Assembly: GCA_947846985.1 (NCBI GenBank)
Contig: CANTUZ010000002.1
Span: 154,933,889-154,997,888 of the forward strand
Direction: 5' to 3'
DNA from: Fratercula arctica
Lineage: Eukaryota; Chordata; Aves; Charadriiformes; Alcidae
DNA: 64,000 nucleotides
Shown here: positions 18,701 to 60,461 of the stretch, one piece after another
Layout: each line of letters opens with the position of its first letter
How positions within the stretch are numbered: the stretch's first letter is position 1
Notes under the pieces: model-generated
Databases searched by the model: none
The model's input: only the letters and a program-made list of their open reading frames with translations
What the model was told of the DNA's origin: nothing
Program-made: the position numbers and the translations under genes

Positions 18701-18764
18701 TTATTGCAACATGGATTTAATTTGCTTGGAGGTAGTCTCATCATTCAAATGCTTTGTTGTGTAC
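18701..18764 (-). CDS. CYRIB: CYRIB last coding exon, residues 304-324 and stop
   Basis: Acceptor TGTGTTTAG is followed by G, completing Arg304, then [20 protein letters not shown] and TAA at 18703-18701. The exon continues as the 3' untranslated region. The C-terminal KQIKSMLQ separates CYRIB from CYRIA. Confidence 0.97.
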
Positions 18765-21700
18765 CTAAACACAGAAATAAAAATCAAGTTGAGAAGAGCA
18801 TAGAGGCTATTTTATATTTTACTTCGGCTTGGTAAATACGTAATTTCTTTGTTTATGGCTCAACCTGACCATACCAGAGCTAAACCCTCAGCCACTGATC
18901 ATCACCCACTCCAGTTACCAAGTCAGACATCCTGATCAGCAAATGCTACTGTCAATCAGAGCTATAACCCAACAGCCTTGAACCAAAGGGCATTAAAAAT
19001 AAGCCTCAGCTGGATGCTGGCTTTCGTGCTCACAGGCTATTTCACCATAAACTCATGTTGTGATAGGTAATCACTCACATGGGATAGGTAATTATCACTA
19101 ATTCTGAGATCTCTGTCCATAGGAAACATCTTCAAATGAAACACAGCTTCAGAAACCTTTCTCCAGAACTTCCAGTGACCAAACCTTTCTAAGATCCCCC
19201 AAATGAGACTGGATTTAATTGCTTTTCAACCTAATTTCCTGTTTAGCTAAGTAACAGTGCTGCTAAAACTAAAGAGTACGTGCATGTGTTTATTGACACC
19301 CCCCCTTCAAAATTCTCTAGAACATTAGCACATTTTTAAATCACTACAAAAAAACTCAGTCATCGCTTATTTTAAAAGAAAATACTGTATATCCTCAGTG
19401 CTGGCTTCTTTGTATGATTCATTTGCCTCAATCTTCCTTCCCTGACTAATCTAGAAGTAAGGAAAAACTTACTCTATAATTTAAATTTAAGATGTTAAAT
19501 TAGCACTTCCACTGTTATCCACAACCACAGTGATATTTTAGTTGTTCACTTGAAGAATATATGACTTTTTGTTTTGGAAATTAATATCAATATAGATTTC
19601 AACACATTTTGATAATTTATACTCTCCACAAACAAGAGGCATAAGGTTTTCTAAAATCCTGAAAAGTTATTGCACTTGGTATTCTTCCCATGTGAAAAAG
19701 CTGAACGTGATTACAATATTTTATGAAATTCAAATTATAAACAGCTGATCTTCCTCCAAAATCCATACCACCTTCCATTTGCTTTTAAGACATTATCTAT
19801 CTCTTGAGAAAACATAACTTCTAACACTCCTTTGGAATCAAAGACTTAAGATTTTGACTTAATTTCTCATGACATCAATTTCCCATGACATCACCTTGAA
19901 TTTGCTTTCACTGTGCACGCACATGGCAGCTCACCTCTGCATCGCTTCCTAACAATTCCAAAAGTGATAGTAAAATATTTAAATATCCTACCCAATCGAG
20001 TAATTGAACGTATGAAACCAGGACTGTTAAAGTATGCAAGCATGAAAAGGGCTGGTGTGCTGGAAGGTCACAGCACAACAGCACAGACTGAATTTACACA
20101 CGACTAACCACAAAATAATGCACAACAAAGTGAGAACCTGAACTACGTTTTCCACGTACTTCACTAAGTGTCAGCCACAATGGGGAAAAATGGGGCACCA
20201 GTAAAGATCAATGTTCATTTGAAGCTGCCATCACAATAAATTAGTCAGAAAATAAGTGCTAATATAGCATTTTCCCTCAGGAAGCTTTTGTTTTTCCTGA
20301 TCACCATCTCAAAGGCTGATCACATACAGGAGGTCAGAGATGAACAACAAAGTGATTTAGGCATGAAAATACTCGCATGAAGTCTCAAATTAAGCCCAGA
20401 TTTATTTTTTTTTTTCCCTTTAGCCAATAATCTGAAAAAAACTTTGCAAGTGAAACCACTCATAATACCACATTAGTTCACTTCTTCCCACATCTTAACG
20501 CAAAAAAGAGGGCAAATGAAGTTAAAGTAGTTTCATTACAGATAAGAAAAACAATGTCCAACTGCAACACTTTCAGGCAAGACAAACTAAAACTTCCACA
20601 TTTCAAAGTGAGTGTATGAATAACAAAACACAGCTACAGTTAATTGTTACCAAAGTAATATAATACTTTTTCATGTAAGGACAAGAATGAAGCCTCCATC
20701 TGCCTATCACGTTTTGTCACTTCTTGACACTCCTCTGATGCTGGACACCCACATGAAGAATGTGTTCCTGACTACAGATACAGCTTTATGACCCAAATTA
20801 GCAGGTTTTAGGTTTGTGTACAGAATTATTAATTTTTCTTTACTTCTCCAATTAATGTGGCAACACCTTGTCGTGTCTATTCTACAGCAAAAACACTGAG
20901 GCTCTTGCCTTAAGTACCTCCCTGTAAATACTTTGTGAAAGAGGAACAATTTCTAGTTACATACCAAAAAAACCCTGTCTTACCTGTCTGAAACTATCTG
21001 TGCAACAAACAAAAAAAATCACATGAAACTACTCTTATGTTCTACTATTAATAAATAAAATCACCAAGCCATGGTCAAACCACAGACAACTGGGGATATG
21101 GCCAACGCAAACTAATCCAGCCACTTCTTTGGTAAGCTGGCACAAGCCAGTGCAGATACTGCAGCTGCTCGTGGGTAATTCAGTTAGATGTGATCACAGT
21201 TAACTTCTGGTTAGCTTTTACCATGTATTATACTTTGTCATGAAATTTAACCTCAGGTACAATGTCTACTGTGTCACGCAGAAGGGTTAAGACCCATTCT
21301 TAGCCTGCATGCAGTTAAGTATGCAGAAAATTATCTTCAAATGAAGAACTGCAAGTTTCCAACCCAGCCTTTGAAACACAGCAGCTTCTTCCTGCATCCC
21401 CCTCTCAAAACACACTGGAAAAGCAGCCTGCAATAGCCACATTCACCTTTCACCTGCACCACTAACTGAATGTCCTGCTGCTGAAGGAAATGCCTTGGAC
21501 AATTTATGAAAAGTCACATAAAAGTATTTCAAATAAAAGAATAAGAGTACCTGAGAGCATTTAGAAGGCCTTCTACACTGTTAGGAGGCTGGTCTTTAAG
21601 AACTTTGATGCATCCTTTCATCTAGGAGTTAAAAAAAAAAATACAGCGTTTTTTCATGCTAATACCTTCTAAGTTTACAAAAGTGTTTTATACTCTACCA

Positions 21701-24700
21701 GAGAAAGAAAAAAAAAATGAGTATTTAAAAACTACAGCAGTGTAAACACATTTTCTTGATATTAGAAAGGAATTAAGCTTTCAGTATTACATTTTCCTAT
21801 GACAGAATGGCTTAGCTACTTAATAATCTGCATGACTTTAGACAATGCAACTTTGATATCAAGATCTACCGGCCTTAAAAGTAAAATGAACTGTAAACAA
21901 AAAAAATAATCTTTGTTTATCATAAATCCATTAAGAATTATTACATTCAGCCACTGAAATAATGACAACCTCTGTAGTTAATACAATGGGATAACAGTCC
22001 ATTTGAAACCACCACGAAGCAGCACGGAGTAACAGCACGTATTCCATAGACTTACTACCAAATAACAGCAGAGAGTTGAAGACCGGACGATGATCAACCC
22101 AGAACCTAGCTCTTTACCAGATGGTGAGGAACAAGCTAGACGCCATTGTTATCTCCAGTCATTCTGATTTGGATCTTTCAACACAACGACTATTCACAAG
22201 TATTTCAAGACACCATCTGAATTCCATCAAGACAGATTTTTCATGACCTAACAATGACCATTTATGTTTCTGAAGGCTTAGTTTGTATTTCTCACTACTT
22301 ATGTATATGGTTTGCTAACATTTACCACTACCCATTTAGCATCAATGGAAAGTGTACATCTGCTACTAGAACCCGGAGGACAGAAAAGGAGTCTACGCAC
22401 AATATAAATGCTCCAAAGATTATTTAGTAACAATAAACTTACATCAATTTTTGAAGTTTTGGCAAAAGCGCCCACCGGATGCACATGGTCATAGAGTATG
22501 ATGACACCCACCATTACCCTCAGACAGAATGATACTGTTTCCTCATTTGTAAACCTGCTTCTATATTCACTGTAATTTAAAAACACAGATTATTATATAA
22601 TCAAACACAAGATGACTAGTAATGCCCGAAATAAGATTAAAGAGAAAAATCCTACTATAAACCCTCAGAGAAAAAACCAAAACAAAAACCCAAAAATTCC
22701 GCCAACCCCATGGACTTTTGAGACTTTTCTTTTTCCTTTCAATAACCTGCACGTAAGTCAGGCCACTGGTTAGAAAGAGTTATCTGGAGACTAACAAAGA
22801 TTCTGAAATCTAAAATAGCGCCCTGCTCCTGTAACTTTTCAAGTATTTGATTTTTTTTCTAGAAAAAAATATTAAAACAATACATACTAACTTTGCTTTC
22901 AATGCTTCCTAGCCTTTTCCCTGCCATCCTCCAATACACACGCAAACCAAGCTTCTGACTCGGGAAAAAACCAAAAAGGCAAGAAAAACCCCAAGCTTAA
23001 TGAAAAATGCTTAACTACCTTCCTGCATGGGACAGATCATCCCTAAGTAGGGTAAGAATATAAGTGTTTGGAGCTCTCAATGTGCCACAAAACAAATGCA
23101 CTGCGGTATTCGGGCAGAAACTTAGTTAAATAAGACGTACCTCATGCCTGAGTAATTTTACAAATGCGAAATTATTTAGATCCCAGAAGAAACAGATAAA
23201 ACCCCCACAGTTTCGTTTGACTTTTTGTTCATGCTCCCAGCGCCTCTCAAATTTGCAGCAGACAATAGACTGCCTTCATGCCTAAAAGTCATCTCAATTC
23301 CCCAGACAGGGGCGCTGGAATTTTGTTACAGCCATTGGCCAAGCCAACTTGCAAGGAGGTACCATCCAACACATGGCCCATAACCCCTCTTTCAGGAGGC
23401 CCTAGGCAATCATGCTCAAATAGTGTATTTTCCTGAATTATGTATGAGAAAACCATTTATAAAGAGTGCCAAGAGGTTGTCTAGCTTTCATAGCCATTCT
23501 ATTTTTAAATATTAATATGTTCAGAACAGTAGACCACATGATTTGCATGGCCAGCAAAATGAGACAAGTTAGTTTCGTGTCAAGGTAACCAGTTAATTTG
23601 GTAAAAAGAAAACACCATAGCTCCTAATTACCCCATTATATTTCTTTCACCTTACGCATCACAAGTCATGTCTTAAAGAGGGAGATGATTCAATACACAA
23701 TACAGACACTGTTTATACTCACGGGGTTTCCAGCATGACCCTGCACACACTAGCCATGGTGCTTAAGCAATCTGTAGTATTCTCTATCGGTAAATTTTTA
23801 TTCTGCAGAAGAAGATAAACAGTTTCCAATTCAATTATTGTGAAATATTATACTACAAAAGCTAAATCGAATCAGTGATCTGCCGGCATGGCAATGCGGA
23901 GGAATTAAACACACCAACACAACTATGGCAACTGGGTTACCTCACACTGGATTTTAAAATGTCACAATAAAGATCGGCGACTTACAGAGCAAAGTTTACC
24001 ATATGAGCTTTGCTAACTTTTTTGTAGTTAAAGAAATACACCATTAACACTTTCGACTTTTGGAAGTTTTAAAGGTATCATCTGACCTGCTCTTTAAAGA
24101 CAGAACTTTCTGCAGCCAAATACATGCATCTGCTGCAATAGTAAGACTTAAAATTGTAGCAGACAAACAAACATCTCAAAGGAATGTAAAAAAAGAAGCA
24201 ATTTTTCTCAAGGCATTTCAAGTGTAAAGCAGAAGTTCGGAAAAAATATTAAAAGACAAATGTCTCTTTGTATTGATCATGTAATGTGCAATTATTTTGA
24301 TTATAAAATAGTGTGCATTCTTTGCATGTAAGACAGAAATCATCATGGTTATCAGAAGTCAAGCACAATATTTATAGTGACTAATATTTATTTAGGTAGT
24401 GATGGATAAATAGGGATATGTCTAAATGGTGGAATACTTTTCCAGTTCAGGTTCCTCCCCTCTTCTGCAATAACCTAACTATACTTGACTTCACACAGCA
24501 GAACAAAAGCATCTTGGAAAGGAGAAAAGGAAGCTACAAATTTCAGTTCCCTTCCCTATTTCAAGCACAGAGAATGAATCCATTTCCCTTTCAATTTTCT
24601 GAAGTTTCTGCTCTAAACCACCACCGAAATGCACCACCTCTCCCACTTCCCTCCTTGGGGAAAGCTATCACTACCAGTGTTGTAATGCTATCCATTAACT

Positions 24701-27700
24701 TTTTGCAACACATCCACAAGGTGGCCAGCTGAACTTACTCTAACCTCTACGGCATCTGAAAAAGATGCTTAATGTTTCTTGAGGCTCCAAAAAAAAAAAA
24801 AGAGTTTAATTTCTAGATTCCAAATGAAGCCTAGTAGAACAGTTTTGTGTTCTAAAGTGATTTCTGGCCCTGCAGTGTTTTGAAGTACACTACCCAAGGC
24901 ATAAATTTATATTCTTACCTCTGACACAAACTTTGTTGTAGCATCACTTAAGGTTTTCAACATTGGTGTTGCTTCAGCATAAAATAAAGACATTCTGTTT
25001 GCCAATTCATTATTTACTTCATTTTCTCCCTCTGCCTACAAAATCGAAGGAAAAAAGAACGTAACTGTTCTGTACATGAGAAGATCAGTGGTAGTATAAG
25101 ATTACATTTCATTCCATCTAAGGGTTACCTACTGGGACATTGTTAATCCTCATACGGCTCAGAGTTCTTCTATAGTAGCTGAAGTCATTCTGTATAGCAG
25201 GATTTGTCATCTACAGAGATATGGAAGCAAAAAAGTTGTGACAAACTCCTTAAGAGAAGAACAAGTTCTCATAAAATATAATACTGAGAACCTTCTGAAA
25301 TAAAAAGGCCCGTCACATGTTGAGAAGCGATATGTAGAACATAAAACTTCCTGGTTAAAATTCTCAGATTTTTCAGAACAAGATCTAATGAGAACAAGAG
25401 AAGAAGCAGTTTCCCAAATAGGAGTTTGAGATTAGTAGGTTGTAAGAAAATGTCTCTGCTAGTTTGACTCCAAGGATCAGGCTAGTAAACTAATATCATT
25501 TCAGCTTAGTTCTTTGCATATTAGCAAGAAAATAGCTGGACTATAGATGTGCACATACTAAAAGCAGCAGCAGCATTATCCCAAGAGGTATGCCAAATTC
25601 AGCTGAAGAAACATGATTAATAGGAACTGAAACATAACAAGTGCCTAAAGCTAATATGATATTTCATCTGCTTTCTAGTTTAATCTAACTGTAGGTCACA
25701 TGAACAAACCAAGCACAGTAGATATCTGAGTTATCTACTACATGCTGTATTCTAGAACAAAACACAACCCGCATTGCTTCAGTAAGCTTCTTTTCTTTTT
25801 GCCAGCCATTGTGTGTATAAAACTACAAGTTCTTACCTTGAGCTCATCAAAGCGGAGTGTAAAGTGAAGAATTTCTGCAAACTGCTTAGCAAGAGCCTGC
25901 TCTCGCTCCAGGTGTTGCGTTGGTGAATATGGAGTGCTCGTCAGGGCTCCCAACAGACCTCGCAATCCTGCCTCTTAAATGAGAGGAGAGTATTTTGCAA
26001 CGTACAACTGCACCTGCTTTTTGTATCTCTGCTGACTGATATTCTGCAGGCTAGATTTGAATCATCCATCTGCCAAAGTACACGGTAATTAATAATAAAG
26101 GGGCTTGATGAATCACTTCTATGTGCCACTTACCACGTTTGCTTACAAACTGCTGTAAAGACTAGGTCTAAGCAGCACTGACAGCCATGAAAAGACTTAC
26201 TGAAAAGTTTTAGTCGAGCTTTGTCTGCAACATTTGTGTAAAACATTTCAATCACGTGTATTAGCAGACTGTAGTGTTTAAGATAACACAGAATTCAAGA
26301 GGTACATACCTATCAGCAGAAGTCATGTCTTATTTATGATAAACTTACAATCAACTTCCTACTCATTTTGAGAAAAATACCTCATCTCTTTAACAGAGCA
26401 GAACTTGCCTGCAAAAAGCTTCTATTTTCTGAACCACAAATACCTTTTCTTCATGAGCTATGCTAGTCACTGTCTGAAAGCCAACAAGTAGTTTGTGATA
26501 AAACAAATCAATTCTAATAGGTTTTATCAGCTTAGACACAAATCCAACTTGACTGATGCTGGAAGAGGTATGAAGGCACCTGCATAAACCAAGATCAAAC
26601 ATTTCCATAGACCAAATTATTTCTAGTGTTTGGGGGGGAATAACATAGTCACTTTTCATTACTCTTGGTATCAGAAACATTATCAGAATTCAGTCCCGAC
26701 AAGTTAGTCTGCTAGTTTTCAAACAATCTGCTGGTTAGTGCTTTCCAGAGTTACTAAAGAGGGCAGAGAGAGAGGATGATAACTATGCTCACATTCTCTC
26801 TCTCCTCTTGGTACCCCCACTGAAGCAGGTTTGCTTTCACATGCAAGAAAGTAGTATGCAGATATAAATAGGATCCAACAAGGCGTTGACCCAGATGTGA
26901 TCACATCTGAATACGACAAATTTACTAATTAATGAAGACAACCCCCCCCAAGTTAATACCATTCCACTTACCTAGTCTTTGAGAAAATTCATAGAATTTC
27001 TTTAGTTTGCCTACTAGTGGAACAACTGCACCCCATGCCTTCTCTTGCAGCTTCTCATCATTGGGATGCTGTATTGCCTTAAATTAGAGAGAGGAAATAA
27101 GTATGCTTAGATTAAGAATAACTGATACAGTATTAAAAAAAATAAAATCTATGCCGGGTAATTGTTTGAGGAACTAGTAATTAAAAATTCTGCCTACTGA
27201 GAAGTTTACAGTTGAGAGATAAGCCTGTACTAACCCATGTCTGTTCCAAAATGCTCTAAATACTTGTGTTGAAAAATAAGTATCCTGAACATGAAAACAA
27301 CTTGGAGAAAGTATAAAGGAATTGTTAAAAATAAAGCTAATCAAATAAGAAAATTTACATAACCAGACCTAGTTAATTAAAATCAACAACTTCATTGGAG
27401 TACCTCCAAGCAAAAGTTTAGTGATCAAAGACTCATCTTAATGTTGCTATTTATCACCAATTTTTGAATTTGCAAAGAAAAAACAAAATCAAACAAATTT
27501 GCTGTGAAATTCAGGCTAAATATTACAGTAGGAACATTTAAGCCTAACCAACAACATAAAGCACCACCAAGACATGGTATATACCACAGTTTCGAGGTAT
27601 ATATGCATAGACCTTGTCTTTACAGCAAGCTTCCCAGACAGGTAAAACCTTAAATTCAGTCTCTCCAGGTTTTTAAGATAGAAACTATACCACTTCGCAA

Positions 27701-30700
27701 CTGAAAATTACTAAGAAAACAGAAATAAAAAGGCTCATAACTCTCCTGCTGCACCTTCACAGTCAGCTCCTTGATTCCAAAAACTGTTTTAGCCAACCCT
27801 GGGCTGTGAGTTGCAGCACACTCCTCTCTGGTCCATGGGAAGTTTCCTTCCTGCGATGTCTACCTCCTTCTCAGAAGCATCTCTCTTCTTTCTCCGCGGG
27901 AGCTGCAGGCTTCGTTGCGGAGACACACTCCTGCCAGATCCTACAGCCTCTCCCTGAACAAGCTCCTTCCTTGAAGAACAAATAAGCTATCTCTCCTCCT
28001 AAGGGTTTTATGTGATGCAGTTACTACCTTCTAAAATCTACCTTACGAATTCAACAGACTGAATAAAAACTCGTGGTACTTTAAAGCTGAATGGCTCTGA
28101 GTATCTCAAATTCATCTAGAGTGAGCAGAGACTCCTCCTATGTACTAGGATTTCTTAAGAGTATGCTACAGTAACTCCTCACTTTAGGACCAAAGTAACC
28201 CCATTGCTGCATCTGAGGAAGAAGGGAAGGGAGTTGAGAGAGTATTTATTCCACCCTTTCTTAAAGGTAAATGAAAAATGGAGTGGCATGCTATAAAGAA
28301 ACTTTGCTTCTGTTCCAAACACCTACTTTAGTAAATAAAAGCCAATTAAAAGGAATTGAAAATGAGATGTCTTTTGTGTTAGGATTATCACACATCAGAT
28401 TTCTCCAATTAGCGTACAAAAAAAGATGTCGACACCACTCAATATTGCACTGTAGTCACGTCACGCTCTCTACAAATTCACCACTAACCCAGTAAGAGCT
28501 TATGTGGGAATACAAAGAAAAATCAATAGCAACAATTCCATAACGAGTTTGAGAAGCATCATTTGCTATTACACATGTGCATTAATATTACTGAAACAAG
28601 CGACATCTGTTTCACTGTTAAAAAGGAACATTCCAGAGCAGAAATTCAAGACAGCAGTTTTAATAGATAACATGCTCTGCCAAAACAGCTCCTGCAAGCA
28701 AAGTTAAAATCCAGCAGCATTTGGTTAGGATGAAACAATGAACAACCACAGGTTGTGCACAATCATAACGCTCTAGCTCACCTCTCGTATTTCATGGCCA
28801 GCTCCTCTATATGACTGCAAGTCTTCCAGTATTCCTTCTGCATCCTTTAACACTACATTCACCTGATTATAAATTTCCTTTTCAGATTCTGTAGGTTGGG
28901 CATCTAAACAGTAGAACATATTAAATATATATATATTTTTTTTAACAACAATATGGAATTCAATAGGCACACCATCACCTATGGGACAAATTCTTCATGC
29001 AGCAACTCAAGAATTTTCCTTTTCTGAAGAGTCACTACAGCGTATAAGGAACTCCAAGAAAGTAATTGCATTTATTTTAATAGTCTTTTAGATTCATTTA
29101 GCATCCCAAAAATTCACCCGGAATCCATCCTTCCTGACTTATTTAAAATTGAGTAGGAGAAGAAAACCTGACAAGTCATCTTTATTGTACCAATCTCACC
29201 TTAGAGCGCAGTACAAGCTCAATGGAAGAGACGTAGGTAAGCACTCAAAAGACACGGTCACCACAGATATTACAGGAGGTGTTCACGTCTCTTTTTATCT
29301 AGAAACACTGCATCAGATTATTTTCCATCTTCCCTGCCTCTCCTTTTACTGGTTGGGAAAGAAGCTGTATCTTTTACTTCTAAATAGATTTAATTCTCAA
29401 AACATATTCTTTATTGTACTAATTGCAAAATCAGAGTTAAGAATAAAAAGATCTAGCGTAAACTTGCTCTCTTTTTTTCTCTCCCCACCCCCCCCACCCC
29501 CCCCCCCCCGCCTTAAGGATATATGTTGTCTCTCAGCTTTTTTTATAATTAGCTAACAACTTGCCAAAAGTATTTGGTATTCATTTCAAAAGCACTACAC
29601 ATACAGGTTTCATGAAATGTCATTCAATGAGAAGTATGTTTTGAGAAGAATCAACAAAAGGTTTTAACCTTTAAAAATAATCACTTACTACAAATATCCC
29701 AGACCTGGTTTACCCAATACGAGATCAGTTTTTCTTTTAAAGTTCTGATGGAAGCTATAAGGTTAGTTCCTTTTAGACCAATATAAAAAAAAAAATCTAG
29801 TTAGTTACTGAAGGTGCTTCTGAAGCTCTTACAGAAAAAAGCCCACACTTCTGTTTACATGGGCAAAATATGTTATGAAATAAATATCAGTATATTTTAA
29901 TCCAAGATTTCCAATGCCGAAAGTCAGGGTATTAACAACAGATCTTTTTTTATAGGGACGAACAAAAACTATCTATGGACAGTATATCCTCATGATTTTG
30001 TGCAGCTTAAGGAGTCTGGAAAATGTCTTTCTATGATCCATATGTATAACTCCCACTAACAGCGACGGTAGTTTGGTACATACATTAAAAAGAAACAAAT
30101 AATCACAATATCCTAGTGTTACACACTAGGAAAAAAAAATTAGAAAATGAAGTCTGTATTAAGAAAAATTAAGTTTCACATGCATTGCCTGTCTGGATTT
30201 TGCTGTAATTTTTGCATAATACTTCTTATTTTTATGGTTTAATGCATAGTGAGTGCGTGTTATTAGCAAATACGCCTAAACGTAGACCTTGCAACAGTTT
30301 AACTGTGATATTTTGAGAACCATCAAGAATTAACATGGGTTTAAAAAAAAAAAAAAAGCTGGTCACTCCTTTTTTTAAAAAAAAAAAAGTTTAAGAGCAC
30401 CATGTTGATTAGGCATTGAGTAAAAGCACCAGTGCTTTTCAGATCATCACAAAGGTCACATTCATAATTTTGAAAGCTGCTGAAGACTGCTATAAGAAAT
30501 GAAGACAAAAAAAAATGAGGGAGAAGAGCAGACAGGTCAGCACCAGTTGACTGGCAGCAGTTCATGCACAAACATGAAACGCTATAGTGAAATACAGACT
30601 AAAACATGAAGCTCTGTAGCATAACAGATCATGTTGTTAAATAATGCAATCAAGACTTGCCACTTGGATTGTCTCACACTGAGCACATCTCTTGCCTATT

Positions 30701-33700: not shown

Positions 33701-36003
33701 GCTACCATCTTTCAATAACAATATATTCAGAAGAGACAATTGATAACATCAACAGTACAGCATAAGGGTCTAGAAAAGTTGTAACTTTAATTGTCATTAA
33801 AGCAAAACCATATTTCTGCAAGCATTCACTTTCACATTAGAACTAATATAACCAATTGCTACTGTTTCATCAAATATAACTGAAAAATAATTTGGGGGAA
33901 GAAAAGAAGATAAAATGAATCTCTAATTATCCATATCACAATATTTCATCTTTTTTTGTTATGCTATTCCACTGTATTTTATTACACAGTCAAAACGCAC
34001 TTTAACATTAGTTTTCTTATTTTACGCTTGCTGGTGTGCAGCTGAGTAAAGCAATAGCATATTTCAAAATAAAGTAGTTAAACATGCATAGCAGCAGCCA
34101 ACTCCACTTACCTGCCATTCTTAGGCTATATTATATCATGCAACAAAAAGTAAAAGCAGAAATACTAATAATATGCAAACCTTCCAGAACACTTGGCATT
34201 GACGAGAAGCTATACGTCTCTTGCGTTCAAAAGCACTTTCGTCTCTATACCCTGAGCCCTCCTTTTAAGGAGGGATTAGGTTAACTGTCAAATTTCAATG
34301 CCAAATCAAATAAGGCTCACATATACACCTATAATGTGATAATGCTGGAGAGCTATGAATAGCTGTTGTGAGTCAATCTGTATATGCAGCGTTATTCAGT
34401 GGCACGCTGGAAGTGAAGAAAAAAAGAATCAGGTTTCATATTCACAATCAGGCTTCATTTCATCCTTTAAGGCACATGTATCTCCTTGCAATTTCAGCAA
34501 GTCTTCAAATAATTCAAATTCTTTTTAAAGTTTTGAGTAGAAGATGACAGAATTTTGGTTTAAAACAAGAACCATAACAGATTCCAACAGTAAAATATAA
34601 TTTGAAAGCCCTCCCCTGAAATAAAGTTTTTAGGTTTTAGAAATGGAAATTGTTTTAAGACAGATTATTGCTTTCTGCAAAAATTTGCTGAACAATTATC
34701 CATAGCTCAGGCATGCAAAGCTGTTAGAAGGATGGCAAAGTGAAAACATACATTTAGTACATGACAAATGCAGTCTACTGCAGGCAAAGAGTAATAGATA
34801 TATAAAATCATCTTCTCACTTTCAAAATCAAGGAAAAAATTTGGCCCCTGCTCAAGGTCTGTGCATGTCAAAACTTTTAGAAGGTTCCCCATGTTAAGGT
34901 ACCTGCCAAGACAAGAATGAGAGAAAAGAAAATTTTCTTTTTATAAGAAGGAACCGCCCAAATATAGTTGATTGAAGCAGTGGGGGAAAGAAGACCAGAG
35001 AGTTCCATCAGGCACGAACCCATCCTTCAGGCTGCCACCCTGATGGGTGGAGGGAGACCCCCACCTCAGGGATGTACAGCTGGTGATCCCAGAGATGCAA
35101 TGCAGCTTTCCTGTACGAAGTGACTACGTCACCAACATCTTCACAGCTGCCCGGTCAAGAAAAGGGCAGAACCCCAACTGAAGGCATCGTCAGTGACTAA
35201 TTCTGTCCTGGTACACCCTAGCAGCAGTGTCCTGAGCAGGAGTACCACATGGAGGGCTAAAGACCGTATTTGCAAGCATTAACATGGTAGCCGTACTACA
35301 GATTTTTACCTGATGGGACAACAGAAGGAAAGAGTTTTCATTTGGTCAGCCCTTATAATTTTGTCAGAAAGCCATTCTAGAAAAGCACATCAAATTACAT
35401 CATTTCAGTGTGCAGAAAAAGAGAACACAGGTATGCCACAGATCTTTTACACAAGGTGCCCAAAACATCCATGAAGCTCAGACAATTCCACTTTGGCCTT
35501 CTGGATGTAAAAAAAACACATTGACTGCACCACGAATGTCCGAACCAGGATCAGGAATGATTTAGTACTCACTCTTGTACAAGATAGGATTACAGTCAAC
35601 AACTGCTCAGCACAGATTACTATGGCATACTGACAGAATTTTTCCTTTTATGATTACATGATTTGAAGGCAGATGGATGGACGTCACTGACCACAGAGAC
35701 CCAAAATGACTAAGCACAAGGAAAGAAAATTTACACAGTAGCATGATGGTGGCTTGGCTACTACTGGAGGGGAAGAAAAACAAAAAAAAAAGGAATGGAA
35801 AAAAAGACACATGCAACTCTTTCAAATTGAAGATTTGCAACTGAGTCCCCTAGCCTTCACTGCAGCAGGTATCAATAACCCTACTGTTACCATCGTAAAT
35901 GCACCAGCTGTGAAGGGCTGAGAGACTTACTTTCAAAATCCAAGAAAAAATGTGCTGCATTGTGGTCTATGTCCCTGGTTAGCACCTTAATGAGATTACC
36001 CAT
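18701..36003 (-). CDS. CYRIB: CYRIB (FAM49B), spliced coding region, 10 coding positions
   Basis: CYRI-B binds active Rac1 and competes with the SCAR/WAVE complex, damping Arp2/3-driven lamellipodia and macropinocytosis; it acts at the plasma membrane and on endocytic vesicles. The exons listed separately, joined with either 34820-34892 or 35931-36003 as first coding exon, give 975 nt, i.e. 324 residues plus TAA, and all split codons rejoin correctly (AAT, GAG, CCT, AGG). Nearly the whole chain after residue 25 is the Rac1-binding (DUF1394, CYFIP-like) fold. R160 and R161 in YYRRTLSR, reported as essential for Rac1 binding, are present. Glycine 2 after the initiator Met fits N-myristoylation. 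Compared with the human protein as I remember it, I see only two changes (Asn71, Gly103). The paralogue CYRIA is less likely: the end reads [10 protein letters not shown] and the middle [10 protein letters not shown], both CYRIB-type. All introns are GT-AG. Confidence 0.97.
18765..21550 (-). other. CYRIB intron between coding exons 10 and 11
   Basis: Unique AT-rich sequence bounded by GTACTC and TTTAG. I see no repeat, RNA gene or further exon; the short open frames inside look like chance. Confidence 0.85.
21551..21621 (-). CDS. CYRIB: CYRIB coding exon 10, residues 281-303 and two bases of 304
   Basis: Acceptor AACTCCTAG, then [16 protein letters not shown] and EGLLNAL plus AG of Arg304, ending at donor GTACTC (GT at 21550-21549), a weaker donor than the others. 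Length is 71 nt. [11 protein letters not shown] is the CYRIB form; CYRIA differs here. Confidence 0.97.
21622..22442 (-). other. CYRIB intron between coding exons 9 and 10
   Basis: Bounded by GTAAGT and CTCCTAG. No repeat or additional feature seen. Confidence 0.85.
22443..22569 (-). CDS. CYRIB: CYRIB coding exon 9, residues 238-280
   Basis: Acceptor TTAAATTACAG, then T completing Pro238, then [33 protein letters not shown] and AFAKTSKID. The donor is GTAAGT (GT at 22442-22441). Length is 127 nt. The hydrophobic [18 protein letters not shown] stretch is a core helix of the fold and not a membrane span. The open frame continuing beyond the donor is intronic. Confidence 0.97.
22570..23722 (-). 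other. CYRIB intron between coding exons 8 and 9
   Basis: Bounded by GTGAGT and ATTACAG. No recognisable repeat or exon-like segment. Confidence 0.85.
23723..23802 (-). CDS. CYRIB: CYRIB coding exon 8, residues 212-237 and two bases of 238
   Basis: Acceptor CTTCTTCTGCAG is followed by AATAAAAATT. The exon encodes [16 protein letters not shown] then [10 protein letters not shown] plus CC of Pro238, ending at donor GTGAGT (GT at 23722-23721). Length is 80 nt. The sequence matches the conserved middle of the CYRI proteins. Confidence 0.97.
23803..24918 (-). other. CYRIB intron between coding exons 7 and 8
   Basis: Bounded by GTAAGA and TTCTGCAG. A plus-strand 104-codon open frame (24,418-24,732) lies here without coding signs. 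Nothing else seen. Confidence 0.85.
24919..25035 (-). CDS. CYRIB: CYRIB coding exon 7, residues 173-211
   Basis: Acceptor ATTTTGTAG precedes GCAGAGGGAG. The 39 codons read from [16 protein letters not shown] to [14 protein letters not shown], and the donor is GTAAGA (GT at 24918-24917). It is phase 0 at both ends, 117 nt. The intron separating it from exon 6 is only 97 bp, the shortest in the gene. Confidence 0.97.
25133..25210 (-). CDS. CYRIB: CYRIB coding exon 6, Rac1-contact exon, residues 147-172
   Basis: Acceptor CTCTGTAG is followed by ATGACAAATCC. The 26 codons run from [16 protein letters not shown] to [11 protein letters not shown]160 and R161 in YYRR are the basic pair known to be needed for Rac1 binding. 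The exon is 78 nt, phase 0 at both ends. The donor is the unusual GTAGGT at 25132-25127; a second GT lies four bases further on (GTAACC). Frame continuity with the next exon (AEGENEV) requires the first GT. Confidence 0.96.
25211..25836 (-). other. CYRIB intron between coding exons 5 and 6
   Basis: Bounded by GTAAGA and TCTGTAG. No feature recognised inside. Confidence 0.85.
25837..25973 (-). CDS. CYRIB: CYRIB coding exon 5, residues 101-146
   Basis: After the acceptor CTCATTTAAG the exon begins AGGCAGGATT, completing Glu101, and continues [19 protein letters not shown], then [18 protein letters not shown] and TLRFDELK. The donor is GTAAGA (GT at 25836-25835). Length is 137 nt. The [19 protein letters not shown] stretch is shared by CYRIA and CYRIB, while STPYSP marks this as CYRIB. 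Gly103 replaces the Ala I remember from mammals. Confidence 0.97.
25974..26971 (-). other. CYRIB intron between coding exons 4 and 5
   Basis: Bounded by GTAAGT and ATTTAAG. It contains a 96-codon minus-strand open frame at 26,390-26,680 with no family resemblance. No repeats recognised. Confidence 0.85.
26972..27077 (-). CDS. CYRIB: CYRIB coding exon 4, residues 66-100 and first base of 101
   Basis: The acceptor is TCTCTAATTTAAG and the exon starts GCAATACAGC. It encodes [19 protein letters not shown] followed by [16 protein letters not shown] plus a G, and ends at donor GTAAGT (GT at 26971-26970). Length is 106 nt. Asn71 differs from the Ala I remember in the mammalian protein, so it may be a lineage-specific change. 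The remaining residues match. Confidence 0.97.
27078..28781 (-). other. CYRIB intron between coding exons 3 and 4
   Basis: Bounded by GTGAGC and AATTTAAG. Unique sequence; a somewhat more GC-rich patch at about 27,750-27,970 has no recognisable identity. Confidence 0.85.
28782..28903 (-). CDS. CYRIB: CYRIB coding exon 3, residues 25-65
   Basis: The acceptor TACTGTTTAG precedes ATGCCCAACC; the first two bases complete Asn25. The 40 following codons read from [13 protein letters not shown] to [10 protein letters not shown] and stop at donor GTGAGC (GT at 28781-28780). Length is 122 nt. The segment forms the start of the helical CYFIP-related fold. The ATG at the exon start is not an initiator; it is a split Asn codon plus Ala. 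Confidence 0.97.
29483..29512. repeat. C-rich low-complexity run
   Basis: A stretch of C interrupted by three other bases, 30 bp, inside the intron before exon 3. On the minus strand (the transcript) it is a G run. Confidence 0.9.
31371..31448 (+). repeat. Possible relic of a tRNA-derived SINE
   Basis: TCTCAGCTGGTTAGGGCAC (31,378-31,396) closely resembles a tRNA D-arm/A box, and GGTTCCTCTTCC (31,437-31,448) is a rough B box at tRNA-like spacing. Stems do not pair as in a tRNA, so it is not a functional tRNA gene. Confidence 0.25.
34820..34902 (-). CDS. CYRIB: CYRIB first coding exon (proximal copy, exon 2a)
   Basis: The acceptor is a pyrimidine-rich tract ending TCTTGTCTTGGCAG. It is followed by GTACCTTAAC and the ATG at 34892-34890. 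The exon encodes [18 protein letters not shown] then FFLDFE plus one base, and ends at the donor GTGAGA (GT at 34819-34818). This is the N terminus I know from the canonical mammalian CYRIB protein. Gly2 is the expected myristoylation site. Cys10 lies close behind it and could serve as a second lipidation site; the distal copy lacks it. The open frame running on past the donor is intron read-through. Confidence 0.96.
34903..35930 (-). other. Intron separating the two alternative CYRIB first coding exons
   Basis: About 1.03 kb of unique sequence lies between exon 2b's donor and exon 2a's acceptor. Splicing 2b to 2a would place a second MGNL start out of continuity (83 nt is not a multiple of three), so joint inclusion should disrupt the frame. 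No repeats recognised. Confidence 0.8.
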
Positions 36004-36013
36004 GCCAGCAAAC
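35931..36013 (-). CDS. CYRIB: CYRIB alternative first coding exon (distal copy, exon 2b)
   Basis: The exon follows an acceptor reading CTATTTTTAG and has ten untranslated bases, then ATG at 36003-36001. It encodes 24 codons, [18 protein letters not shown] then FFLDFE, plus one base, and ends at a consensus donor GTAAGT (GT at 35930-35929). Its phase-1 end joins to the AT of the 28782-28903 exon to make Asn25. It is the same length (83 nt) and has the same layout as the copy 1 kb downstream, with 14 of 24 residues identical. The TRDID segment resembles the paralogue CYRIA more than the proximal copy does. Gly2 is kept, so myristoylation should be possible. The region matches a functional exon in every visible respect; which tissues use it cannot be told from sequence. 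Confidence 0.87.
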
Positions 36014-47445: not shown

Positions 47446-47482
47446 CTACAGCCAGTGCTGCACTCTGTTCTTGGCCTCCAGG
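47446..47482 (-). other. Exon-like segment, candidate CYRIB 5' UTR exon
   Basis: The acceptor TTTTTCTTTTAAAACAG and strong donor GTAAGA (GT at 47445-47444) flank 37 nt. If included after the 60,383-60,461 segment it would introduce a stop (CTG TAG), so it is more plausible as untranslated leader. No direct evidence of use. Confidence 0.3.
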
Positions 47483-60382: not shown

Positions 60383-60461
60383 CAGTTGGTAGTATCTTCT
60401 TGCAGTCTTAACAGAGAACTTCCTTCCTCAGATTGCTGATGTCGCAGCTCGTCTTCAGAAT
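60383..60461 (-). other. Exon-like segment, candidate CYRIB 5' exon
   Basis: On the minus strand a good acceptor (CTTCTGTTTGTTCAG) is followed by 79 nt and a moderate donor GTAAAC (GT at 60382-60381). One frame is open throughout (SEDELRHQQSEEGSS then LLRLQEDTTN). Its trailing TG would join G-TAC or G-TTT of either first coding exon in frame with the MGN start. It may be a 5' UTR exon, an alternative coding exon or a chance match. I do not recognise the peptide. Confidence 0.35.

What the first reader, a model, noticed from the sequence alone, without database searches (positions are those of the whole stretch)
34820..36013. Tandemly duplicated, probably mutually exclusive first coding exons of CYRIB
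Two 83-nt exons 1.03 kb apart have identical architecture: splice acceptor, 10 nt leader, ATG, 24 codons, phase-1 GT donor. Both begin MGNL and end FFLDFE, with 14 of 24 residues shared. Neither has stops or damaged splice sites, so both appear maintained. As 83 is not divisible by three, including both would disturb the frame, which favours exclusive choice. I believe a similar alternative N terminus exists in mammals but cannot verify it.
Basis: partly seen in the sequence, partly recalled or inferred. Interest (0 to 1): 0.75.

Follow-up and report, generated by a model that had tools for sequence, protein, structure and literature searches.

The report
CYRIB's two alternative first coding exons
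This bird gene carries two interchangeable versions of the exon that encodes the membrane-contacting start of an actin-regulating protein; the swap is already reported in human cells, but the exon pair also sits in two sister genes of this bird and looks older than the vertebrate gene family itself.

Summary
On the minus strand, two 83-nt exons (36013-35931, 34902-34820) each have an acceptor, 10-nt leader, ATG, 24 codons and a phase-1 GT donor; 14 of 24 residues match. The rest of CYRIB lies downstream. Vertebrate proteins with either start are on record; whale shark CYRI-B (6yjj) matches the distal exon at 23 of 24 residues. A 2022 paper reports the swap in human HEK293T cells, so the phenomenon is already known.

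What I add: CYRIA and a third paralogue (FAM49C) in this genome have the same pair, in the same order, with type-specific donors. Including both exons gives a premature stop in all three genes. Lampreys show both types (different genera). None of 118 readable N-termini from an invertebrate-like search has the proximal type. So the distal exon is probably ancestral and the copy predates the vertebrate paralogues. The exon covers residues 1-24 of the 1-25 described as membrane-binding. Both CYRIB exons keep Gly2; only the proximal one has a cysteine (Cys10). FAM49B is a high-confidence palmitoyl-protein, so exon choice may set one or two lipid anchors (inferred, untested). No avian RNA reads were available.

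The parts
35931..36013 (-). distal first coding exon (D): 10-nt leader, ATG at 36003, 24 codons, phase-1 donor GTAAGT at 35930
   Evidence: 23/24 aa identical to whale shark CYRI-B 6yjj
34820..34902 (-). proximal first coding exon (P): 10-nt leader, ATG at 34892, 24 codons, Cys10, phase-1 donor GTGAGA at 34819
   Evidence: 24/24 aa identical to the deposited sequence of 7ajk and to Petromyzon P0186
34903..35930 (-). 1028-nt intron between the two alternative exons
28782..28903 (-). common CYRIB coding exon 2 (acceptor at 28904), target of both donors
26972..27077 (-). common CYRIB coding exon 3
25837..25973 (-). common CYRIB coding exon 4
25133..25210 (-). common CYRIB coding exon 5 (contains Rac1-binding R160/R161)
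   Evidence: residues named in PMC7955166 and PMC8236918
24919..25035 (-). common CYRIB coding exon 6
23723..23802 (-). common CYRIB coding exon 7
22443..22569 (-). common CYRIB coding exon 8
21551..21621 (-). common CYRIB coding exon 9
18701..18764 (-). last CYRIB coding exon, stop TAA
47446..47482 (-). 37-nt upstream 5'-UTR exon; joined to the D exon in pheasant model P0002 and to exon 2 in skip-both models such as P0023; no ATG
60383..60461 (-). 79-nt upstream 5'-UTR exon; joined directly to the P exon in pheasant model P0008; no ATG

Best explanation
These are tandem-duplicated alternative first coding exons of CYRIB, each joined alone to common exon 2. SHOWN: anatomy, homology, open frames and splice sites; each type in vertebrate protein records; the same pair in CYRIA and FAM49C of this genome; a premature stop if both are included; exon swap in human cells (published). 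SUGGESTED by gene models only: a shared set of upstream 5'-UTR exons feeds both. INFERRED: exclusivity comes from splice-site choice, with double inclusion giving no full-length product from the first ATG; it is not forced by intron length (186 to 1277 nt between the exons in the three genes). INFERRED FUNCTION: the swap replaces residues 1-24 of the membrane-binding N-terminus while keeping Gly2 (reported myristoylated) and the Rac1-binding domain, and so tunes how or where CYRI-B docks on membranes to sequester active Rac1. My preferred detail is that the P type can be doubly acylated (Gly2 plus Cys10) while the D type is myristoylated only (about 0.35 for that detail).
For: Anatomy. Beyond chance and old. 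Deposited CYRI-B sequences of both types. Both types across vertebrates: of 197 proteins from two capped lists a regex called 113 P, 42 D, 7 both in one model, 35 neither; of the 35, P0057 reads as P and P0114 as truncated D. Human swap: PMC8872254, 400 to 317 bp (loss of 83 nt) and a same-length clone matching exon 12. CYRIA and FAM49C pairs in the same genome. By BLOSUM score each of the six exons matches the same type in another paralogue best (6 of 6). Donors GTAAGT in 3 of 3 D and GTGAG in 3 of 3 P. Residues 1-25 described as membrane-binding and removed from a crystal construct (PMC7955166 passages). FAM49B in 10 of 18 mammalian palmitoyl-proteomes (PMC5468251) and among medium-confidence PPT1 substrates (PMC9004782 passages). 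Cys in P but not D of CYRIB.
Against: No avian RNA evidence was examined. Skip-both transcripts are reported in human cells, and about 33 of the 197 proteins are models without either exon, so choice is not strictly exclusive. By plain identity the paralogue matching is less clear: CYRIA D and FAM49C D are as close to some P exons as to some D exons (17 residues each). Four other cysteines (223, 231, 253, 284) could carry the palmitate, and no site-level evidence was seen; in PMC9004782 the FAM49B row has no CSS-Palm mark and a SwissPalm figure printed as 0.973. In FAM49C of this bird the P exon has Tyr and the D exon a Cys, so a simple 'P = cysteine' rule fails there. 90% clustering hides isoforms in the protein database.
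Confidence: 0.88

Rival explanations
1. Alternative promoters rather than splice choice: each coding exon belongs to transcripts with its own 5' end and is never in competition with the other.
For: Pheasant model P0002 (D) opens in sequence just upstream of the 37-nt exon, while P0008 (P) joins the 79-nt exon directly, so no single reliable model seen here shows one 5' exon feeding both; the human gene is listed with 78 transcripts (PMC8872254).
Against: Both exons are internal, with acceptors and 10-nt leaders. The 37-nt exon precedes D in P0002 and exon 2 in skip-both models, and the P0002 opening carries a stop in this bird. In PMC8872254 one 400-bp RT-PCR product gave clones with exon 14, with exon 12 instead, or without exon 14.
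Confidence: 0.15
2. The distal exon is a decaying relic, not used in birds.
For: The proximal type dominates the protein lists (113 P against 42 D of 197), though the second search used a proximal probe.
Against: Distal peptide 23/24 identical to whale shark, with intact splice sites. Distal-type models in pheasant, two whales, a flying fox, a pangolin, a hamster and a colugo. Human isoform 3 supported by a cDNA clone and residual protein of about 37 kDa.
Confidence: 0.03
3. The pair mainly sets protein level: double inclusion acts as a poison event and skip-both as a non-productive event, with the peptide difference a by-product.
For: Double inclusion gives a stop inside the P exon in three of three paralogues. 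Clones lacking exon 14 in human cells.
Against: The two peptides are each strongly conserved (P 24/24 bird to Petromyzon; D 23/24 bird to whale shark), which level control alone would not need.
Confidence: 0.1
4. The copies are recent or kept alike by gene conversion within birds.
For: A 29-nt match at 86% across the 3' part of the exons and the donor.
Against: Synonymous sites saturated, flanks not alike; six of six exons score best against the same type in another paralogue; both types in cartilaginous fishes, teleosts and lampreys.
Confidence: 0.01

Closest known systems
Human FAM49B/CYRIB isoforms 1 and 3 (PMC8872254; section 3.6 and passages read, including parts of the abstract)
   Same: Two 324-aa isoforms differing only in the first 25 aa, start codons on exons 14 and 12; cDNA clones show a same-length substitution and an 83-bp loss
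   Different: Exons 12 and 14 are numbered with an exon 13 between them; the passages read do not describe the exons as homologous duplicates or compare paralogues; this window is the bird orthologue
Tandem duplicated exon substitution events (PMC9741552; outline with abstract and sections 6, 12 and 21 read)
   Same: Homologous tandem exons, one used at a time, mostly ancient; 40 of 236 human events are N-terminal; the fates after gene duplication described there resemble what is seen in the CYRI family
   Different: Whether CYRIB is among the 236 could not be checked: the text held no FAM49B, FAM49A or CYRIB and supplements were not open to me
FYN mutually exclusive exons and their division among Src-family genes (PMC9741552 section 12 read)
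   Same: Ancient exon alternatives in a signalling gene (FYN myristoylation is recalled); relatives kept one exon each, as the two teleost CYRIB groups appear to have done
   Different: The FYN exons cover the SH2-kinase linker and the N-terminal part of the kinase domain, not the lipidated N-terminus
Dually acylated N-termini such as Galpha-i/o and Src kinases (recalled)
   Same: Gly2 myristoylation with a nearby cysteine
   Different: In CYRI the cysteine is at position 10 and sits in only one of two alternative exons; its acylation is not shown

Membership tests
Tandem duplicated exon substitution (mutually exclusive homologous exons) | Adjacent exons homologous in sequence | tested here: met
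   14/24 aa; score 63 against 30 for the next best of 127,858 windows
Tandem duplicated exon substitution (mutually exclusive homologous exons) | Same phase, each joinable alone to the same downstream exon | tested here: met
   83 nt each, phase 1, both give a 324-aa protein
Tandem duplicated exon substitution (mutually exclusive homologous exons) | Inclusion of both is non-productive | tested here: met
   Stop at offset 23 (CYRIB), 20 (CYRIA) and 29 (FAM49C) nt in the P exon; this is a translation, not an RNA result
Tandem duplicated exon substitution (mutually exclusive homologous exons) | Transcripts carry one or the other in the organism concerned | not testable with these tools
   No avian RNA reads; reported in human cells by PMC8872254
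Tandem duplicated exon substitution (mutually exclusive homologous exons) | Strict exclusivity (never neither) | tested here: inconclusive
   Two of four sequenced human clones lacked exon 14, in a CRISPR line mutated in exon 14
CYRI/FAM49 (CYRIA/CYRIB Rac1-binding) family | Full CYRI-B coding frame with Rac1-binding domain and R160/R161 | tested here: met
CYRI/FAM49 (CYRIA/CYRIB Rac1-binding) family | N-terminal Gly2 for myristoylation | tested here: met
   MG- in both exons; myristoylation itself is from papers, not tested
Dually acylated (myristoyl plus palmitoyl) proteins | Conserved cysteine near Gly2 | tested here: met
   Cys10 in every CYRIB and CYRIA P-type unit, in none of its CYRIB or CYRIA D-type units; but Tyr in 33 of 36 FAM49C P units, and Cys in the FAM49C D units
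Dually acylated (myristoyl plus palmitoyl) proteins | S-acylation at that cysteine | not testable with these tools
   Protein-level palmitoylation only; no paper in the library holds both 'CYRI-B' and 'palmitoylation'

The most novel reading that the evidence does not exclude
The CYRI family carries a lipid-anchor switch older than the vertebrate CYRI paralogues. Exon choice decides whether a myristoylated Rac1 sequestrator also carries an S-acylatable cysteine in its N-terminal helix. The switch was inherited by three paralogues with type-specific splice donors, and was later split between two teleost CYRIB genes. Published comparisons of CYRI-A with CYRI-B, and of whale shark with human CYRI-B, then partly measure exon type rather than paralogue or species.
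Probability: 0.3. Interest if true: 0.62.

Novelty: already known. Interest (0 to 1): 0.42.

Why it matters
The exon encodes nearly the whole membrane-binding start of a regulator of Rac1 and actin. Ignoring it has practical costs. A knock-out aimed at human exon 14 left isoform 3 behind (PMC8872254). The whale shark structure carries the distal type: the positions 10-18 that PMC7543656 calls poorly conserved in CYRI-B are those that differ between the two exons, so that divergence looks like a comparison of different exons. The tagged proteins in PMC8236918 fit a D-type CYRI-A (Pro16) and a P-type CYRI-B (Pro17). If the lipid reading is right, exon choice links splicing directly to where Rac1 is buffered.

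Tried and rejected
Steric exclusion by a short intron: rejected as a general explanation; the intron between the exons is 1028 nt in CYRIB, 186 in CYRIA and 1277 in FAM49C.

Skip-both isoforms as a conserved third N-terminus: judged unlikely. In bird models the 5'-UTR exon reads GGQEQSAALAV before exon 2, while many mammalian models reach exon 2 through another reading (RTRTESPALAE); the window's two upstream exons contain no ATG. No nucleotide alignment with mammals was possible.

RBFOX control: TGCATG lies 115 nt (D) and 102 nt (P) after the CYRIB donors and 55 nt after the CYRIA P donor, but none within 400 nt after either FAM49C donor. The chance of one within 115 nt is about 0.05, and the window total is as expected (48 against 47). 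Post hoc, kept only as a lead. A paper search on FAM49B with RBFOX listed 8 papers; I saw their titles and abstract starts and read passages of one, none of which names FAM49B as an RBFOX target.

Gene models with both exons in one protein (7 of 197) were not taken as evidence for double inclusion: in P0001 the stretch between the exons matches the intron of this window, and P0054 looks similar. Structure prediction was not run; the D-type N-terminus is in a published crystal structure, and a P-type model was not judged decisive. One paper search was swamped by general splicing papers and was followed.
Full report
CHECK OF THE OBSERVATION. The sequence was read on the minus strand and the exons rebuilt by script. 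The numbers in the finding hold: two 83-nt exons at 36013-35931 and 34902-34820, 10-nt leaders, ATG at 36003 and 34892, 24 codons, phase-1 donors at 35930 and 34819, common acceptor at 28904. Against 127,858 peptide windows in six frames the distal exon is the best match to the proximal peptide after itself (63), well ahead of the next (30); the flanks are not alike, and synonymous sites are saturated. A repeat search finds a 29-nt match across the 3' end of the exons and their donors.

WHAT IT IS. Public proteins carry either N-terminus. The PDB entries 6yjj/6yjk, the whale shark CYRI-B of PMC7543656 (passages read), have the distal type, 23 of 24 residues as in this bird. The deposited sequence of 7ajk has the proximal type, 24 of 24, although PMC7955166 lists that crystal as the N-terminally truncated construct, so only the distal type is known to me to be seen in a crystal. 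The first protein search (best 120 of 1834 hits) and the second (best 120 of 196) gave 197 distinct proteins. A regex called 113 proximal-type, 42 distal-type, 7 with both in one gene model and 35 with neither; by eye P0057 of the last group is proximal-type and P0114 a truncated distal-type. Distal-type CYRIB occurs in pheasant, two whale, flying fox, pangolin, Chinese hamster and colugo models, and in teleosts.

IT IS ALREADY KNOWN IN HUMANS. PMC8872254 (section 3.6 and passages read) states that FAM49B isoforms 1 and 3 are both 324 aa and differ only in the first 25 aa, with start codons on exons 14 and 12. Of four sequenced cDNA clones from a HEK293T knock-out line, two had lost exon 14 (400 to 317 bp, i.e. 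83 nt), one had a base inserted, and one had the same length and matched exon 12. A residual protein of about 37 kDa remained. That exon 12 is the distal and exon 14 the proximal exon is my reading from order and length. PMC2941758 (one table passage read) lists FAM49B among predicted normal-CNS cassette exons without naming the exon.

THE PAIR IS FAMILY-WIDE AND OLD. In the window's own genome the ATG pattern search led to two further pairs. CYRIA on contig C3: distal ATG 111873174, proximal ATG 111872911, both minus strand, with the remaining CYRIA coding exons downstream. A third paralogue on contig C18: distal 3365098, proximal 3363744, with its coding exons in the same locus; its relatives are named 'CYRIA-like', and I equate it with the Fam49c of PMC8872254. 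In all three genes the order is distal then proximal. The donors are GTAAGT for 3 of 3 distal exons and GTGAG for 3 of 3 proximal exons. The distal leaders are alike (GTTTGCTGGC, GTTTGCTGGG, GTCTGCTGGCC). By BLOSUM score each of the six exons matches the same type in another paralogue best (6 of 6); by plain identity two distal exons tie with some proximal ones. Reading through both exons gives a stop in the proximal exon in each gene. In a FastTree of the common body (191 sequences) the CYRIA, FAM49C and CYRIB groups, named by me from their labels, each contain both types. Lampreys show both types, in two genera and not shown in one gene: Petromyzon P0186 proximal, 24/24 identical to this bird; Lampetra P0095 distal-like. 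One search did not list the window's own two ATGs among its 83 places, so it cannot show that there are no further pairs.

ORIGIN. Of the 120, 118 have a readable N-terminus, 0 match the proximal pattern, and 117 of the 118 have [RK] followed by Asp, Glu or Ser at the distal-like position. The distal exon is therefore probably ancestral, and the proximal exon a copy made in stem vertebrates. Isoforms hidden by 90% clustering, and the rows beyond 120, could change this.

FATE AFTER GENE DUPLICATION. In the teleost CYRIB proteins, one clade had 9 proximal, 0 distal and 2 with neither. The other group, a 12-member clade of moderate support (0.82) plus the adjacent P0055, had 13 distal (one truncated) and 0 proximal (Fisher p = 2e-6 on the 22 typed rows). 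Proximal-type fish outside both groups (P0049, P0077, P0092) were left out. The 67 other CYRIB rows up to P0079 are mixed (27 P, 7 D, 2 both, 31 neither). This looks like the division of exons between gene copies described for other genes in PMC9741552 (sections read). It is suggestive only: clustering hides isoforms and synteny was not examined. No row is named as a mammalian CYRIA with a proximal exon (120 of 196 rows seen).

HOW IT PROBABLY WORKS. PMC7955166 (passages) calls residues 1-25 membrane-binding and removed them to crystallise the protein; PMC8236918 (passages) describes an amphipathic N-terminal helix. The alternative exon encodes residues 1-24, so splicing swaps this module and leaves the Rac1-binding domain untouched. 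Gly2 is kept. The CYRIB proximal exon adds Cys10; the CYRIB distal exon has Arg10 and no cysteine. FAM49B is one of 38 proteins found in at least half of mammalian palmitoyl-proteomes (10 of 18) and was caught by both capture methods in rat brain (PMC5468251, section 6 read). It is listed as a medium-confidence PPT1 substrate, though without a CSS-Palm mark (PMC9004782, passages). The acylated cysteine is not given in what I read. The step from these facts to a one-or-two-anchor switch is inference; FAM49C of this bird, with Tyr in the proximal and Cys in the distal exon, does not follow the simple rule.

A CONSEQUENCE FOR PUBLISHED COMPARISONS. [quoted passage not shown] The whale shark N-terminus differs from the proximal type at position 5 and at exactly 10-18, while matching the bird distal exon at 23 of 24. 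If the human sequence used there was the proximal isoform, as I assume, the comparison is between alternative exons, not species. Likewise, the GFP insertion sites in PMC8236918 (Pro16 of CYRI-A, Pro17 of CYRI-B) fit a distal-type CYRI-A and a proximal-type CYRI-B.

LIMITS. No RNA data for birds; no supplementary tables; the genome search answered only once. Statements about what was not found in print rest in the open-licence library only.

Noticed in passing
G000:C3:111872911-111873174 (L010) and G000:C18:3363744-3365098 (L009): The same distal-proximal first-coding-exon pair exists in CYRIA (186-nt intron between) and FAM49C (1277-nt intron between) of this genome.
   Followed up: yes
window 34712-34717 and 35810-35815 (-): A TGCATG (RBFOX-type) motif lies about 100 nt after each of the two donors; CYRIA's proximal exon has one 55 nt after its donor, FAM49C has none within 400 nt.
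   Followed up: partly
proteins P0198-P0317: 86 of the 118 readable N-termini, many of them arthropod, have a Cys-Cys pair in the loop after the MG start, hinting at an independently placed S-acylation site.
   Followed up: no
teleost CYRIB proteins: Two teleost CYRIB groups appear to keep one exon type each: proximal in one, distal in the other.
   Followed up: partly
window 47446-47482 and 60383-60461 (-): Upstream 5'-UTR exons recoverable from bird models; skip-both models splice the 37-nt exon to exon 2 in frame, but mammalian models read differently there.
   Followed up: partly
PMC12501019 (passages): FAM49B is among 27 genes prioritised by a schizophrenia splicing-QTL study; the passages read do not name the intron.
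   Followed up: no
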